Shown one piece after another: positions 57,053 to 62,362 of a DNA stretch of 64,000 nucleotides (position 1 is the stretch's first letter; each line of letters starts with the position of its first letter). Both the position numbers and the translations under genes were made by a program. Source of the DNA: Xanthobacteraceae bacterium (GTDB lineage: Bacteria; Pseudomonadota; Alphaproteobacteria; Rhizobiales; Xanthobacteraceae). The stretch spans positions 62,001 to 126,000 of the forward strand of contig JANINJ010000074.1 in assembly GCA_024508855.1 (NCBI GenBank). Direction: 5' to 3'. The notes below the pieces were generated by a model. That model ran no database searches, had not been told where the DNA came from, and saw only the letters and a program-made list of their open reading frames with translations.

Positions 57053-57751
57053 ATGACGGAGGGGACGGAAGAAAAACCGGTTGTCTATCTGCACGACATC
57101 CGGCGCCAGTATCAGCAGGGCGAGACCACGCTGACGATTCTGGACGGCGCGCAGCTTGCGCTGTGGGCCGGGCAGTCGGTGGCGCTGGTGGCGCCGTCGG
57201 GTTCGGGCAAATCGACGCTGCTGCATATCGCCGGGCTGCTCGAACATCCCGACGAGGGCGAAGTCTTCGTCAACGGCAATCCTACCTCGGCGCTATCGGA
57301 CGCGCAGCGCACCCAGATCAGGCGAACCGATATCGGCTTCGTCTATCAGTCGCATCGGCTGCTGCCGGAATTCACGGCGCTGGAAAACGTCATGATGCCG
57401 CAGATGATCCGTGGCCTGAAGCGCTCGGAAGCGAGCCGGCGCGCCCGCGAGTTGCTCGGCTATCTCGGGCTCGATGCCCGCGTCACGCATCGGCCGGCGG
57501 AATTGTCCGGCGGCGAACAGCAGCGCGTGGCGATCGCGCGCGCGGTGGCCAACGCGCCGCGGGTTCTGTTTGCCGATGAGCCGACCGGCAATCTCGATCC
57601 GCACACCGCGGACCATGTGTTTCAGGCGCTCATGCAACTGGTCAGGGCGACCCAGGTGTCGATGCTGATCGCCACGCACAACATGGAATTGGCCGCGCGG
57701 ATGGATCGCCGCGTCTCGCTGGAGAACGGCCAGGTCGTCGAGCTGGAATAA
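57053..57751 (+). CDS. lolD: Lipoprotein-releasing ABC transporter ATP-binding protein LolD
   Basis: 232-residue ABC ATPase. Walker [18 protein letters not shown]-loop [18 protein letters not shown], signature [19 protein letters not shown], Walker [15 protein letters not shown]-loop LIATHN. It partners the lolC product. ATG 57053 begins [18 protein letters not shown]; the frame extends upstream inside lolC without homology. Confidence 0.98.
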
Positions 57752-57780: not shown

Positions 57781-58041
57781 TTAGCGCCGATGCGGGCGAC
57801 GCGGCGGCCATCGTTTCTCGACGTTGTAATGATAGAACGGATTCATCAGGCACTGGGCCGGCAGGCCCGACGCAACCGGCCTGCATTGCTCAATCGACGT
57901 GTAGGCGCACTCGTCGTAGGTGACGGGGCCGTAGACATGCAGGCACACCGGATAGTCCACCGCGGCCTGCGCACTGGACATGCCAAATCCGGCGGCGGTG
58001 GCAACCGCCGACATCGCGATCAGCGCTCGCCGCATCGTCAT
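57781..58041 (-). CDS. DUF3551 small exported protein (copy 1)
   Basis: 86-residue protein with a signal peptide (MTMRRALIAMSAVATAAGFGMSSAQA) and a mature part VDYPVCLHVYGPVTYDECAYTSIEQCRPVASGLPAQCLMNPFY, the DUF3551 pattern of four Cys and a DYPxC start, followed by a basic tail RWPPRRPHRR. The family is abundant in Bradyrhizobium relatives; function unknown. It lies 25 bp downstream of a paralog on the same strand, apparently a tandem duplication. The start could also be the ATG at 58035. Confidence 0.85.
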   Translation of the reverse strand: MTMRRALIAMSAVATAAGFGMSSAQAAVDYPVCLHVYGPVTYDECAYTSIEQCRPVASGLPAQCLMNPFYHYNVEKRWPPRRPHRR

Positions 58042-58066: not shown

Positions 58067-58354
58067 TCAATAATCGCGGTGGTGGTGATGGCGGCGGCGA
58101 TGATGACGCGGGCGCGGCGGAGCCGCTTCGTCATACACCGCGGGACCTTGATAGTAGGGATTGACGTCGCAGTAGTTGTAGCGGCCGGATGCGGTCGCTT
58201 CGCACTGCTCATAGGTCGAGAAGCTGCAATCTCCAAGGGAGCTGGGATAGCCCTGGCCCTTGATGCAGAACGGATAGTCCCGGGCCTGTGCCGGAGCCGT
58301 GGCGAAGGCCGACACCGCACCGATCGCCATTACCGCCAAAATTGCCGCACGCAT
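58067..58354 (-). CDS. DUF3551 small exported protein (copy 2)
   Basis: 95-residue paralog: signal peptide MRAAILAVMAIGAVSAFATAPAQA, then RDYPFCIKGQGYPSSLGDCSFSTYEQCEATASGRYNYCDVNPYY with the same Cys spacing as copy 1, and a C-terminal tail rich in Arg and His (PRPRHHRRRHHHHRDY). The His-rich tail might bind metal or be an unstructured periplasmic end; this is inference. The upstream in-frame extension to 58408 lacks signal-peptide character. Confidence 0.87.
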   Translation of the reverse strand: MRAAILAVMAIGAVSAFATAPAQARDYPFCIKGQGYPSSLGDCSFSTYEQCEATASGRYNYCDVNPYYQGPAVYDEAAPPRPRHHRRRHHHHRDY

Positions 58355-58525
58355 CGCAAACCTCCGCTCCGGCCTTGGCCGGTCCTGTGATTCTTCGCGT
58401 AAACTCAAGCCGGTATTGCTGCTTCAGGTCAACTCACGATCCGGAGTAGCGCCGGTGCAATCGCCGCAGAGCCGGCATCCTAGAAACCTTTTGTTAAGGC
58501 CGTTTATTCCTGGCCGCCGAGGTGC

Positions 58526-58569
58526 TTGACTCCTCAGAACAAAACTAGAACAATGTTCTGGTTATGTTC
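58526..58569 (+). promoter_or_regulatory. LexA-controlled promoter (two SOS boxes)
   Basis: TTGACT (58526-58531) and AACAAT (58549-58554), spaced by 17 nt, form a promoter. Overlapping the -10 and start are two alphaproteobacterial LexA sites: GAAC-N7-GAAC (58537-58551, i.e. GTTC-N7-GTTC on the minus strand) and GTTC-N7-GTTC (58555-58569). The two boxes face each other around GAACAATGTTC. Both half-site pairs are exact. Confidence 0.85.
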
Positions 58570-58583
58570 CAAAGGAGGCAAAC

Positions 58584-58682
58584 ATGCTGAAGGTGTTCGT
58601 TGAAGAAGCTGCGGCGCTGGCATCCATTACGCTGTTCGTGGGCATGATCGCGGTGTGGGCCCAGGTCATTCCGCAGCTCTGA
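58584..58682 (+). CDS. SOS-controlled 32-residue single-span membrane peptide (SidA-like candidate)
   Basis: A 33-codon frame (32 residues) directly behind a double LexA operator and a strong AAGGAGG (58572-58578, 5 nt from ATG 58584). The peptide has a short N-terminal segment with one Lys and two Glu (MLKVFVEEAAA), one hydrophobic helix (LASITLFVGMIAVWAQV) and the tail IPQL. In Caulobacter the LexA-repressed 29-aa inner-membrane peptide SidA delays cell division during DNA damage by acting on the FtsW/FtsN divisome. Size, topology and control match that design, so a division-inhibitor role is inferred; homology was not tested. A small dyad (TCCATCG/CGATGGA, ~58683-58702) follows the stop. 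Confidence 0.8.
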   Translation: MLKVFVEEAAALASITLFVGMIAVWAQVIPQL

Positions 58683-58858
58683 TTCCATCGCTCCGACGAT
58701 GGAGATGGTGCATGAGGTCGCTGTCCTGAGGATTTCCGGGACAGCGGGCAGGGCGAGGGGGTTCCGGGTGGACAGCCCCGGCGGTACGCCGCACCATTGC
58801 GGGGCGAGTCGGTTGGTTCAACCGGTCGTTCTCCTCCAGTTGAAGCTGTTGTCGCCGC

Positions 58859-61800
58859 ATGCCCAAGCCCGAACTGCCCGTGTCACCGGCTTCCGGTCCC
58901 GGATTTGTCCACCTGCACGTCCACTCCGCCTATTCGCTGCTGCGGGGCGCGATGAAGGTGCAGAAGCTGGCCGAACTCGCCAAGGCGGATCGGCAGCCGG
59001 CGCTGGCGCTGACTGATACCGACAACCTGTTCGGCGCGCTGGAATTCTCCGACAAGCTCGCCGGCTACGGCATCCAGCCGATCGTCGGTTGTGAGCTGGG
59101 AATCGATTTCGGCGATCAGGACCCCAATGGCCGCGCCACCGTTCTGAGCGCGCCGTCGCGCATCGTGCTGCTGGCCGCACGCGAGCAGGGTTACCGCAGC
59201 CTGATGCGGCTCAATTCCCGCGCCTTCCTCGAAACCCCGGTGCACCAGTCGCCGCACATCAAGCTCGAATGGCTCGAGGGCGAGTCAGAGGGGCTGATCG
59301 CATTGACCGGTGGCCCGGAGGGCCCGGTATCGCTGGCGATCACCGCCGAACAGGCGGCACTCGCCGCGCAACGCTGCGATCGGCTGGCGGAGTTTTTCGG
59401 CGATCGGCTTTATATCGAATTGCAGCGCCATGGCGTCGAGCGCGAGCGGCGCGCCGAATCCGCGCTGATCGATCTGGCCTACGCCAAGGGTCTGCCGCTG
59501 GTAGCAACCAACGAGCCGTATTTCGCAGCGGCCGACGACTACGAAGCGCACGATGCGCTGTTGTGCATCGCCGGCGGCCGGCTGATCGCCGAAACCGAAC
59601 GCGATCAGCTCACCCCCGACCATCGTTTCAAGACCCGCGCCGAAATGGCGGTGCTGTTCGCCGATCTGCCGGAGGCACTGGCGTCCACCGTCGAGATCGC
59701 CGCGCGCTGTGCCTATCGGCCGCGTACCCGCAAGCCGATCCTGCCGCACTTCACCGTCGGCCCGGATACCAACGCCGCCGATGCCGAGGTTGCGGAAGCC
59801 GCCGAGCTGCGCCGTCAGGCCGAAGAGGGGCTGGCGCGCCGCCTCGCGCTGCACGGTCTTTCGCAGGGCACGAGCGAGGAGGACTATCAGAAGCGGTTGG
59901 GCTTCGAGCTCGACGTCATCACCCGCATGAAATATTCGGGCTACTTCCTGATCGTGTCCGACTTCATCAAGTGGGCGAAGGCGCAGGGCATTCCGGTCGG
60001 GCCGGGGCGCGGTTCGGGCGCAGGCTCGCTGGTCGCCTATGCGCTGACCATCACCGACCTCGATCCGATTCGCTTCGGCCTGCTGTTCGAGCGCTTCCTC
60101 AATCCCGAGCGCGTCTCGATGCCGGACTTCGACATCGACTTCTGCCAGGACCGCCGCGGCGAGGTCATCGACTACGTGCAGCAGCGCTACGGCCGCGATC
60201 ACGTCGCGCAGATCATCACCTTCGGAACGCTGCAGGCGCGCGGCGTGCTGCGCGACGTCGGCCGCGTGTTGCAGATGCCTTACGGGCAGGTCGACAAGCT
60301 GACCAAGCTGGTGCCGCAGAATCCTGCCGCGCCGGTGTCGCTGAAGCAGGCGATCGAGGGCGAGCCGAAACTGCAGGCGTTCCGCGAGGAAGACCCGGTG
60401 GTGGCGCGCGCCTTCGATATCGCGCAGAAGCTGGAGGGACTGACGCGCCACGCCTCGACCCACGCCGCCGGCATCGTGATCGGCGACCGGCCGCTCAGCG
60501 ATCTCGTGCCGCTCTACCGCGATCCGAAATCCGACATGCCGGTGACCCAGTTCAACATGAAATGGGTCGAGCCTGCGGGGCTGGTGAAGTTCGACTTCCT
60601 CGGACTGAAGACGCTCACCGTGCTCGATGTCGCAGTGAAGCTGTTGAAGCAGCGTGGCAAGAATGTCGATCTTTCGACGCTGCCGCTCGACGACGCGCCG
60701 ACCTATCAGATGCTGGCACGCGGCGACGTGGTCGGCGTGTTCCAGGTTGAAAGTCAAGGCATGCGGCGTGCGCTGGTCGACATGCGGCCGGACCGTTTCG
60801 AGGACATCATCGCGCTGGTCGCGCTCTATCGCCCGGGGCCGATGGCCAACATCCCGACCTATTGCGCGCGCAAGCACGGCGACGAGGAGCCGGAATACCT
60901 GCATCCGATGCTGGAGCCGATCCTGAAGGAGACCTTCGGCGTCATCATCTATCAGGAACAGGTGATGCAGATCGCGCAGGTCATGGCCGGCTATTCGCTC
61001 GGCGACGCCGACCTGTTGCGCCGCGCCATGGGCAAGAAGATCCGCGCCGAGATGGAGAAGCAGCGCGCCATCTTCGTCGAAGGCGCGGTGAAGAACGGTG
61101 TGCAGCAATCGCAGGCCGATACCATCTTCGAATTGCTGGCGAAGTTCGCCGACTACGGCTTCAACAAGAGCCATGCCGCCGCCTATGCGCTGGTGTCGTA
61201 CCAGACCGCCTATATGAAGGCGCATTATCCGGTCGAGTTCATCGCCGCGTCGATGACGCTCGACATGAGCAACACCGACAAGCTGTCGGAATTCCGCTCG
61301 GAAGCGCAGCGGCTCGGCATCAAGGTCGAAGCGCCGTCGATCAATCGTTCCGGCCCGACCTTCGAGGTCAGCGACAACACGATCTACTACGCGCTGGCGG
61401 CGCTGAAGGGCGTGGGCGCCAGTGCGGTGGAGCAGATCGTCGACGCACGCCAGAAGGGTCTTTTCACCTCGCTGGCCGACTTCGCCACGCGGGTGAATCC
61501 GCGCGCGGTCAACAAGCGCGTGATCGAGACGCTGGCTGCGGCCGGCGCGTTCGACACGCTCGAGAGCAATCGCGCGCGCGCCTTTGCCGGTGCGGAATCC
61601 ATTCTCGCCGCATGCCAGCGCAGCCATGAGGCAGTCACTTCCGGCCAGAACGACATGTTCGGCAACATGGCCGATGCGCCGACGGTGATGCTGCCGAATA
61701 TCGATGCGTGGCTGCCGTCCGACCGGCTGCGCCGCGAATATGATGCCATCGGCTTCTTCCTGTCCGGTCATCCGCTCGACGACTACGCCACGATCCTCAA

Positions 61801-62362
61801 GCGGCTGCGCGTGCAGTCGTGGGCCGAATTCTCGCGCGCGGTAAAGACCGGTGCGACCGCAGGCAAGGTCGCCGCAACGGTGGTGTCGCGCATGGAGCGG
61901 CGTACCAAGACCGGCAACAAGATGGGCATCATCGGGCTGTCCGATCCGACCGGGCATTTCGAGGCGGTGCTGTTCTCTGAAGGGCTGGCGCAATTCCGCG
62001 AAGTGCTGGAGCCGGGTGCAGCGGTGCTGCTGCAACTCGGCGCCGAGCTGCAGGGCGAGGATGTGCGCGCGCGCGTGCTGCACGCCGAACCGCTCGACGA
62101 CGCAGCGGCGAAAACCCAGAAGGGCCTGCGCATCTTCCTGCGCGATACCAAATCGCTGGACTCGGTGGCCAAGCGACTGGAGGGACCGGCCGGCGGTGGC
62201 TCGTCCGCACCGGGACGCGGCGATGGCGACGTCTCGCTGGTGCTGATGCTCGACCTCGAAACCGAGATCGAAATGAAGCTTCCGGGCCGTTACAAGGTTT
62301 CGCCGCAGATCGCGGGCGCCATCAAGGCGGTCTCGGGCGTCGTTGACGTGCAGACCCTTTAA
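58859..62362 (+). CDS. dnaE: DNA polymerase III subunit alpha
   Basis: 1167 residues, typical of the replicative DnaE1. N-terminal PHP domain begins FVHLHVHSAYSLLRGAMKVQKLAELA with the metal His residues kept. The palm shows the catalytic aspartates in RVSMPDFDIDFCQDRRGEVIDY, preceded by GPGRGSGAGSLVAYALTITDLDPIRFGLLFERFLNPER. The fingers include RHASTHAAGIVIGDRPL, and FNKSHAAAYALVSYQTAYMKAHYP precedes a helix-hairpin-helix region and an OB domain (MGIIGLSDPTGHFEAVLFSEGL). The C-terminal region differs from DnaE2/ImuC. It is not obviously under the LexA promoter at 58526, which is ~290 bp upstream with an intervening small gene, though read-through is possible. Confidence 0.98.
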   Translation: MPKPELPVSPASGPGFVHLHVHSAYSLLRGAMKVQKLAELAKADRQPALALTDTDNLFGALEFSDKLAGYGIQPIVGCELGIDFGDQDPNGRATVLSAPSRIVLLAAREQGYRSLMRLNSRAFLETPVHQSPHIKLEWLEGESEGLIALTGGPEGPVSLAITAEQAALAAQRCDRLAEFFGDRLYIELQRHGVERERRAESALIDLAYAKGLPLVATNEPYFAAADDYEAHDALLCIAGGRLIAETERDQLTPDHRFKTRAEMAVLFADLPEALASTVEIAARCAYRPRTRKPILPHFTVGPDTNAADAEVAEAAELRRQAEEGLARRLALHGLSQGTSEEDYQKRLGFELDVITRMKYSGYFLIVSDFIKWAKAQGIPVGPGRGSGAGSLVAYALTITDLDPIRFGLLFERFLNPERVSMPDFDIDFCQDRRGEVIDYVQQRYGRDHVAQIITFGTLQARGVLRDVGRVLQMPYGQVDKLTKLVPQNPAAPVSLKQAIEGEPKLQAFREEDPVVARAFDIAQKLEGLTRHASTHAAGIVIGDRPLSDLVPLYRDPKSDMPVTQFNMKWVEPAGLVKFDFLGLKTLTVLDVAVKLLKQRGKNVDLSTLPLDDAPTYQMLARGDVVGVFQVESQGMRRALVDMRPDRFEDIIALVALYRPGPMANIPTYCARKHGDEEPEYLHPMLEPILKETFGVIIYQEQVMQIAQVMAGYSLGDADLLRRAMGKKIRAEMEKQRAIFVEGAVKNGVQQSQADTIFELLAKFADYGFNKSHAAAYALVSYQTAYMKAHYPVEFIAASMTLDMSNTDKLSEFRSEAQRLGIKVEAPSINRSGPTFEVSDNTIYYALAALKGVGASAVEQIVDARQKGLFTSLADFATRVNPRAVNKRVIETLAAAGAFDTLESNRARAFAGAESILAACQRSHEAVTSGQNDMFGNMADAPTVMLPNIDAWLPSDRLRREYDAIGFFLSGHPLDDYATILKRLRVQSWAEFSRAVKTGATAGKVAATVVSRMERRTKTGNKMGIIGLSDPTGHFEAVLFSEGLAQFREVLEPGAAVLLQLGAELQGEDVRARVLHAEPLDDAAAKTQKGLRIFLRDTKSLDSVAKRLEGPAGGGSSAPGRGDGDVSLVLMLDLETEIEMKLPGRYKVSPQIAGAIKAVSGVVDVQTL

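What the first reader, a model, noticed from the sequence alone, without database searches (positions are those of the whole stretch)
58526..58682. Double LexA operator driving a 32-aa membrane peptide: likely SOS cell-division inhibitor of the SidA type
Seen directly: two exact alphaproteobacterial LexA half-site pairs (GAAC-N7-GAAC and GTTC-N7-GTTC) overlapping a -35/-10 promoter, an ideal Shine-Dalgarno, and a short frame encoding one hydrophobic helix. Known: Caulobacter SidA is a 29-aa LexA-repressed inner-membrane peptide that stalls division via the divisome. The match in size, topology and regulation suggests a functional counterpart in a Bradyrhizobium-like lineage. Genes this short are routinely missed by annotation. 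The adjacent dnaE makes a DNA-damage context natural.
Basis: partly seen in the sequence, partly recalled or inferred. Interest (0 to 1): 0.85.

Follow-up and report, generated by a model that had tools for sequence, protein, structure and literature searches.

The report
SidA-type DNA-damage division-inhibitor peptide
A tiny gene sitting just before the DNA polymerase gene dnaE, under a double switch for the DNA-damage response, looks like a distant version of a known Caulobacter peptide that stops cells dividing while DNA is damaged, which suggests this safety brake is more widespread in this group of bacteria than gene annotation shows.

Summary
Window 58526-58682 carries a promoter, two mirrored LexA-type boxes, a Shine-Dalgarno and a 32-codon frame. 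The frame is a real gene: relatives occur in 146 of 198 family genomes. Of 67 inspected family loci, 66 have at least one exact box and 60 the mirrored pair; pN is 0.20 against pS 0.63. The evidence goes further: it is most likely SidA's orthologue. In the 30 best-scoring Caulobacter-family loci SidA lies directly upstream of dnaE, the same slot. A Rhizobiales-only profile matches the SidA profile (P 3.1e-6; 0 of 300 column shuffles as good). In five same-genus genomes nusG follows instead of dnaE, yet peptide and operator stay, so the operator belongs to the peptide. Similar box-plus-membrane-peptide pairs lie before dnaE in some other alphaproteobacterial families. NCBIfam's SidA model does not recognise it. 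Damage induction, membrane insertion and division arrest are inferred, not shown. Best reading: LexA-repressed, single-helix inner-membrane inhibitor of the FtsW/FtsI/FtsN septal complex.

The parts
58526..58554 (+). sigma-70-type promoter: -35 TTGACT (58526-58531), 17-nt spacer, -10 AACAAT (58549-58554) lying inside the operator
   Evidence: TTGAC within 150 nt upstream in 65 of 67 family loci; TTGA and AAC[AT]AT at a 15-17-nt spacing in 45 of 67
58537..58551 (+). LexA-type box A, GAACAAAACTAGAAC
   Evidence: at least one exact box in 66 of 67 family loci
58555..58569 (+). LexA-type box B, GTTCTGGTTATGTTC, mirror image of box A with a 3-nt gap
   Evidence: mirrored pair in 60 of 67 family loci, gap of 3 in 55
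58573..58578 (+). Shine-Dalgarno AGGAGG, 5 nt before ATG
58584..58682 (+). SidA-like gene, 32 aa: MLKVFVEEAAALASITLFVGMIAVWAQVIPQL
58859..62362 (+). dnaE, DNA polymerase III alpha subunit, downstream neighbour in the conserved slot; probably not part of the unit
   Evidence: Pfam DNA_pol3_alpha, DNA_pol3_finger, PHP, HHH_6
57053..57751 (+). lolD-like ABC transporter ATPase, upstream same-strand neighbour; the name and the start are my reading
   Evidence: Pfam ABC_tran; relatives upstream in 46 of 67 family loci within the fetched flank

Best explanation
58584-58682 is a SidA-type gene: a LexA-repressed, 32-residue, single-helix inner-membrane peptide that holds back cell division while DNA is damaged. 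LexA on the two mirrored boxes covers the -10 element and keeps the promoter shut; RecA-triggered LexA cleavage opens it; the peptide inserts into the membrane and keeps the septal peptidoglycan synthase complex (FtsW/FtsI/FtsN) inactive without dismantling the Z ring; repression returns after repair. Shown here by sequence: gene, operator, conservation, purifying selection, locus shared with SidA, profile similarity to SidA. Inferred: LexA binding, damage induction, membrane insertion, the FtsW/I/N target, division arrest.
For: Relatives in 146 of 198 family genomes. 67 family loci (66 genomes): at least one exact box 66, mirrored pair 60, reversed-motif control 0, dnaE downstream 62; random windows with a box 30 of 11,888; pN 0.20, pS 0.63 over the 63 loci of 32 aa. 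80 further named loci, mostly Bradyrhizobium, the 80 kept of 294 found: two boxes in 80, dnaE in 78. Order-wide profile: 86 of 397 genomes; of the 67 outside the family I read 51: 47 have dnaE downstream, 41 an exact box. Caulobacter-family SidA, 30 best-scoring loci of 92 genomes: dnaE begins 85-138 nt after the SidA start in 30 of 30; exact box 20, one mismatch 10. Profile-profile, SidA left out of the query: P 3.1e-6 (29 Rhizobiales peptides) and 3.2e-4 (27 family peptides); 0 of 300 column shuffles as good in each. Helix 2-31, pLDDT 93.6. SidA's mechanism from passages of PMC4211646.
Against: No experiment on this peptide. The curated SidA model does not match it: no match in G000 at E 0.01; 2 of 27 family members at best E 0.067; 1 of 29 in the wider set, where three unrelated families scored better (E 0.012-0.029), so these weak model hits carry no weight. 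The FVW invariant in 13 SidA sequences is absent; the shared core is short (acidic residue 8, L12, S14, F18, M21). Profile probabilities are modest (38.9 and 88), and for the family profile the best shuffle (17.7) comes close to the real score (18.2); for the wider one it is 19.5 against 24.7. The -35/-10 spacing could be matched in only 45 of 67 family loci. 52 of 198 family genomes gave no match; a profile search of these gave 5 weak hits; of 19 whose dnaE upstream I read, 2 hold a divergent peptide with paired boxes and 17 have no exact box. Target residues on FtsW/FtsN were not tested.
Confidence: 0.8

Rival explanations
1. SOS-induced membrane peptide that acts on the membrane itself (depolarisation, growth slowdown, as recalled for TisB and as described for DinQ) rather than on the divisome.
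For: Size, single helix and LexA-type control would look alike. DinQ is described as a toxic single transmembrane peptide in the start of the abstract of PMC3567139 (listing).
Against: Shared locus and profile similarity with SidA; two acidic residues and one basic residue in the window's peptide; E8, L12, L17, F18 and W25 invariant in 27 family sequences, which suggests a protein partner.
Confidence: 0.1
2. The operator serves dnaE: the damage response raises the replicative polymerase, and the small frame is a leader or by-product.
For: dnaE follows on the same strand in 62 of 67 family loci; no terminator-like site in 58350-58950, so read-through is possible.
Against: In five same-genus genomes nusG follows and dnaE was not found in the fetched flank, while peptide and operator are kept; pN far below pS; the start-to-start distance to dnaE ranges from 160 to 2074 nt.
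Confidence: 0.07
3. Chance: unrelated boxes next to a meaningless hydrophobic frame.
For: Single boxes are common.
Against: Conservation of peptide, boxes and place.
Confidence: 0.01

Closest known systems
SidA of Caulobacter crescentus (NCBIfam NF033228)
   Same: Small peptide (29 against 32 aa) with one hydrophobic helix; LexA-type box; directly upstream of dnaE on the same strand; profile similarity with shared acidic residue 8, L12, S14, F18 and M21.
   Different: Not recognised by the curated model; lacks FVW, has W25; two mirrored boxes in most of this family, while about 97% of Caulobacter SOS promoters have one box (PMC12700426, passage); target and phenotype unknown here.
DidA of Caulobacter crescentus
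   Same: Small damage-induced membrane division inhibitor (PMC4211646, passages).
   Different: DidA is driven by DriD, not LexA, and binds FtsN (same passages); no sequence comparison was made here.
YneA (Bacillus), SosA (Staphylococcus), ChiZ (Mycobacterium)
   Same: Damage-induced small membrane division inhibitors; YneA acts on FtsW (PMC13396833, start of abstract and passages).
   Different: From Gram-positive and mycobacterial species; PMC4211646 (passage) lists yneA, divS, chiZ and sidA as genes unrelated to sulA; no sequence comparison was made here.
SulA of Escherichia coli
   Same: LexA-controlled division inhibitor.
   Different: SulA disrupts FtsZ polymerisation (PMC4211646, passage) and, as recalled, is a larger soluble protein; this is a 32-aa hydrophobic helix.

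Membership tests
SidA (broad orthologue group) | LexA-type operator on its promoter | tested here: met
   Two boxes at 58537-58569, at least one in 66 of 67 family loci; LexA binding itself not tested
SidA (broad orthologue group) | Peptide of about 29 residues with one transmembrane helix | tested here: met
   32 aa; helix 2-31, mean pLDDT 93.6, single-sequence model; membrane location not tested
SidA (broad orthologue group) | Same chromosomal slot, upstream of dnaE on the same strand | tested here: met
   Window; 62 of 67 family loci; 30 of 30 Caulobacter-family SidA loci read
SidA (broad orthologue group) | Sequence homology by profile comparison | tested here: met
   hhalign P 3.1e-6 and 3.2e-4; 0 of 300 column shuffles as good in each, narrowly for the second
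NCBIfam NF033228 (Caulobacter-type SidA) | Score over the curated cut-off of 35 bits | tested here: not met
   No match in G000 at E 0.01; 2 of 27 family members at best E 0.067. Even in the Caulobacter family only 71 of 119 genomes pass, so the cut-off marks a sub-branch; I do not file the peptide in this model
SidA (broad orthologue group) | Binds FtsW/FtsN and arrests division on expression | not testable with these tools
   Needs experiment
SidA (broad orthologue group) | Induced by DNA damage, RecA- and LexA-dependent | not testable with these tools
   Needs RNA-seq or reporter
SulA | SulA-type protein (Pfam/NCBIfam match) | tested here: not met
   No Pfam match for any of 27 family members and no SulA match in NCBIfam at E 10

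The most novel reading that the evidence does not exclude
SidA is not a Caulobacter speciality but an ancestral alphaproteobacterial SOS checkpoint gene, kept in a lolD-sidA-dnaE neighbourhood and hidden from annotation by its size and divergence; Bradyrhizobium and its kin evolved a mirrored double LexA operator for it.
Probability: 0.6. Interest if true: 0.72.

Novelty: new member of a known kind. Interest (0 to 1): 0.6.

Why it matters
It supplies a concrete candidate for how Bradyrhizobium, Rhodopseudomonas and other Rhizobiales stop dividing when DNA is damaged, testable with one deletion and one expression strain. It would also turn SidA from a single-family oddity into a conserved class, giving natural sequence variation with which to map how a 30-residue helix blocks the septal synthase. 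The curated SidA model misses this branch, so annotation built on it would too.

Tried and rejected
Chance explanation rejected. RNA-gene reading: Rfam on 58350-58900 gave two matches, both far below gathering scores; rejected. Operator-for-dnaE reading set aside because of the nusG genomes. Pfam: no family for any of 27 members. The NCBIfam SidA model is too narrow to find this branch. Second peptide-like hits L058, L076 and L077 were left out of the 67-locus count: no box, no dnaE. In one search, L136 and L139 have neither box nor dnaE and look like false positives; they are counted in the 51. Of 26 class-search loci read, 17 had no dnaE. Of the five NF033228 class matches, three (L152-L154) had neither box nor dnaE. 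Script misread reverse-strand loci and stopped on an error; repeated. Script had a wrong pattern; repeated, in which the DnaE motif pattern still failed, so the dnaE distances come from tblastn (projected to residue 1 of the window's DnaE), recomputed by hand for L252, L259 and L262 with the peptide starts. One search showed L153 and L154 on the wrong strand; corrected. One locus of the 89 (L298) was cut by a contig end and read with a shift; rechecked whole, no box; another (L382) has only 259 bases. Literature: seven searches and passages of six papers (PMC4211646, PMC12700426, PMC13384398, PMC13396833, PMC10811719, PMC2245857). In these listings and passages I saw no SidA orthologue described outside Caulobacter; many papers are not held, no paper was read whole and supplements were not read. 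My recollection that SidA was thought confined to Caulobacter and near kin comes from no call.

Full report
What is there. The promoter is the only sigma-70-like site in 58350-58950. Single boxes mean little, 3 in the window against 1.81 expected and 143 in the genome against 99 for the reversed pattern, but the paired arrangement is found at this place alone in the genome at zero mismatches. The genome's one lexA match and its recA each have one GAAC-N7-GAAC box upstream, which fits the alphaproteobacterial LexA motif quoted in PMC12700426 (passage).

It is a gene. A search with the 32 residues found relatives in 146 of 198 genomes of the family, 35 of 47 genera, with no stops inside the listed matches. 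I read 70 family loci: 30 returned by the search (the best-scoring) and 40 fetched by place, spread over genera. Three second copies without box or dnaE were set aside, leaving 67 loci of 66 genomes (one genome gives two contigs). At least one exact box stands within 150 nt upstream in 66 of 67, the mirrored pair in 60 (gap 3 in 55, 31 in three, 1 and 8 in one each), and a reversed-motif control in none; random 150-nt windows of the same loci have a box in 30 of 11,888. 63 are exactly 32 aa; among these, differences per site are 0.20 nonsynonymous against 0.63 synonymous. TTGAC stands upstream in 65 of 67, but my stricter pattern for -35 and -10 with a 15-17-nt spacer fits only 45 of 67. Eighty further loci from named genomes, mostly Bradyrhizobium, with one Rhodopseudomonas, one Afipia and several unnamed metagenome-assembled genomes, were kept of 294 found: 80 have two boxes and 78 have dnaE downstream; of the two others one is cut short after the peptide and one has nusG there. 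Some of these are the same genomes as in the first set.

The operator belongs to the peptide. In 62 of 67 family loci dnaE follows. In the five others, all of the window's genus, nusG follows within 1.5 kb instead, and peptide and operator are kept; in L156, the same genome as L010 with a longer flank, no dnaE lies within 3.1 kb and secE precedes nusG (both names from Pfam). So the operator is unlikely to be there for dnaE.

Beyond the family. A profile of 27 family peptides (A1) found matches in 86 of 397 genomes of the order. Of the 67 matching genomes outside the family I read 51. Although many E-values are only 0.001-0.01, 47 have dnaE downstream on the same strand and 41 an exact box within 110 nt; two look false. 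These independent features support most of the weak hits.

Link to SidA. NCBIfam's SidA model passes its cut-off in 1 of 385 class genomes, in the genome family that I infer to be Caulobacteraceae because the same model also rings in the control genome Caulobacter vibrioides; within that family 92 of 119 genomes match and 71 pass. I read the 30 best-scoring loci. SidA lies directly before dnaE in 30 of 30, 85-138 nt from start to start, with an exact LexA-type box in 20 and a one-mismatch box in 10; random 110-nt windows give an exact box in 4 of 1268 and one with at most one mismatch in 71 of 1268. lolD lies upstream within the fetched flank in 17 of 30. A Rhizobiales-wide profile without SidA (A4, 29 peptides picked for diversity) aligns to a SidA profile (A3, 13 peptides) with P 3.1e-6, probability 88; the family profile alone with P 3.2e-4, probability 38.9. 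With columns shuffled, 0 of 300 reach the real score in either case (best shuffle 19.5 against 24.7, and 17.7 against 18.2; reversed profiles 7.1 and 8.0). Against this, the SidA model itself hits the peptides only weakly, and in the wider set three unrelated families score better. Same slot, same kind of operator, same size and significant profile similarity together make orthology the best reading.

Wider survey. Using both branches as a profile (A2), 38 of 385 class genomes match at E 0.1. I read 26 loci: 9 have dnaE downstream, 17 do not. Among the 9 are seven from three families outside the window's order and outside the Caulobacter family (f55, f61, f188); whether any belongs to Caulobacter's order was not determined. 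Six of these seven have an exact box (five, one, G717), G715 none. A second survey did not rely on peptide similarity: of 144 genomes with a DnaE match (of 153) I read up to 0.9 kb upstream in 89, following the E-value order with one skipped. An exact box occurs in 23; eleven permuted words give 0 to 5. In 17 there is a GAAC-N7-GAAC and in all 17 a 24-47-residue frame with a strongly hydrophobic stretch begins shortly after it; the six with only GTTC-N7-GTTC, close to dnaE, have none. Random points gave such a frame in 303 of 2840 trials in the other genomes, and in 240 of 680 in the 17 themselves, where a point can fall before the same frame. The hydrophobicity threshold and start rule were mine, applied alike to the controls. 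Scored with A2, the 17 range from clear (G642) to no similarity (G636), so for the weakest ones kinship is a guess from position. In the remaining 66 of 89 no exact box was seen.

Gaps. 52 of 198 family genomes gave no match; a profile search of these found only 5 weak hits. I searched dnaE in 24 of the 52: 19 gave a match. Two of the 19 hold a divergent 32-residue peptide with mirrored boxes that the profile had missed, and 17 show no exact box in the up to 1.5 kb read. So there is both divergence beyond detection and probable loss or relocation.

How it most likely works. LexA would occupy two sites that overlap the -10 element, in keeping with tight control of a harmful product; damage removes LexA; the peptide inserts as a single helix (helix 2-31, pLDDT 93.6) and holds the septal complex inactive. 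In Caulobacter, SidA binds FtsW and FtsN and does not disturb Z-ring or divisome assembly, and ftsW and ftsI mutations suppress it (PMC4211646, passages); deleting sidA relieves the filamentation of a lexA deletion (PMC12700426, passage). For the window's peptide these steps are inferred. The double operator differs from Caulobacter, where about 97% of SOS promoters carry one box (PMC12700426, passage).

Verdict. A real, conserved gene that the curated model does not recognise, most probably an orthologue of SidA: a new member of a known kind, with an unusual operator and a wider distribution than the model implies.

Noticed in passing
58067-58354 and 57781-58041, minus strand: Two DUF3551 proteins side by side between lolD and the peptide gene (Pfam PF12071, E 1.9e-25 and 4.2e-18), with signal-like N-termini by eye; starts chosen by me.
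   Followed up: partly
L010, L023, L026, L027, L030, L156: In five same-genus relatives (L156 is the same genome as L010) nusG, and in L156 secE before it, follows the peptide gene instead of dnaE: a rearrangement breakpoint right after this gene.
   Followed up: partly
L326, L334, L364, L377, L378, L323: In six other alphaproteobacterial genomes a GTTC-N7-GTTC stands 64-94 nt before the first matched DnaE residue with no membrane mini-frame after it; possibly LexA boxes on dnaE itself, or chance.
   Followed up: no
L058, L076, L077: Second peptide-like copies elsewhere in three genomes without LexA box or dnaE.
   Followed up: no
L057, L059, L060: In one genus the two mirrored boxes are 31 nt apart instead of 3, with a TTGA element between them: a rebuilt promoter that still keeps both boxes.
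   Followed up: no
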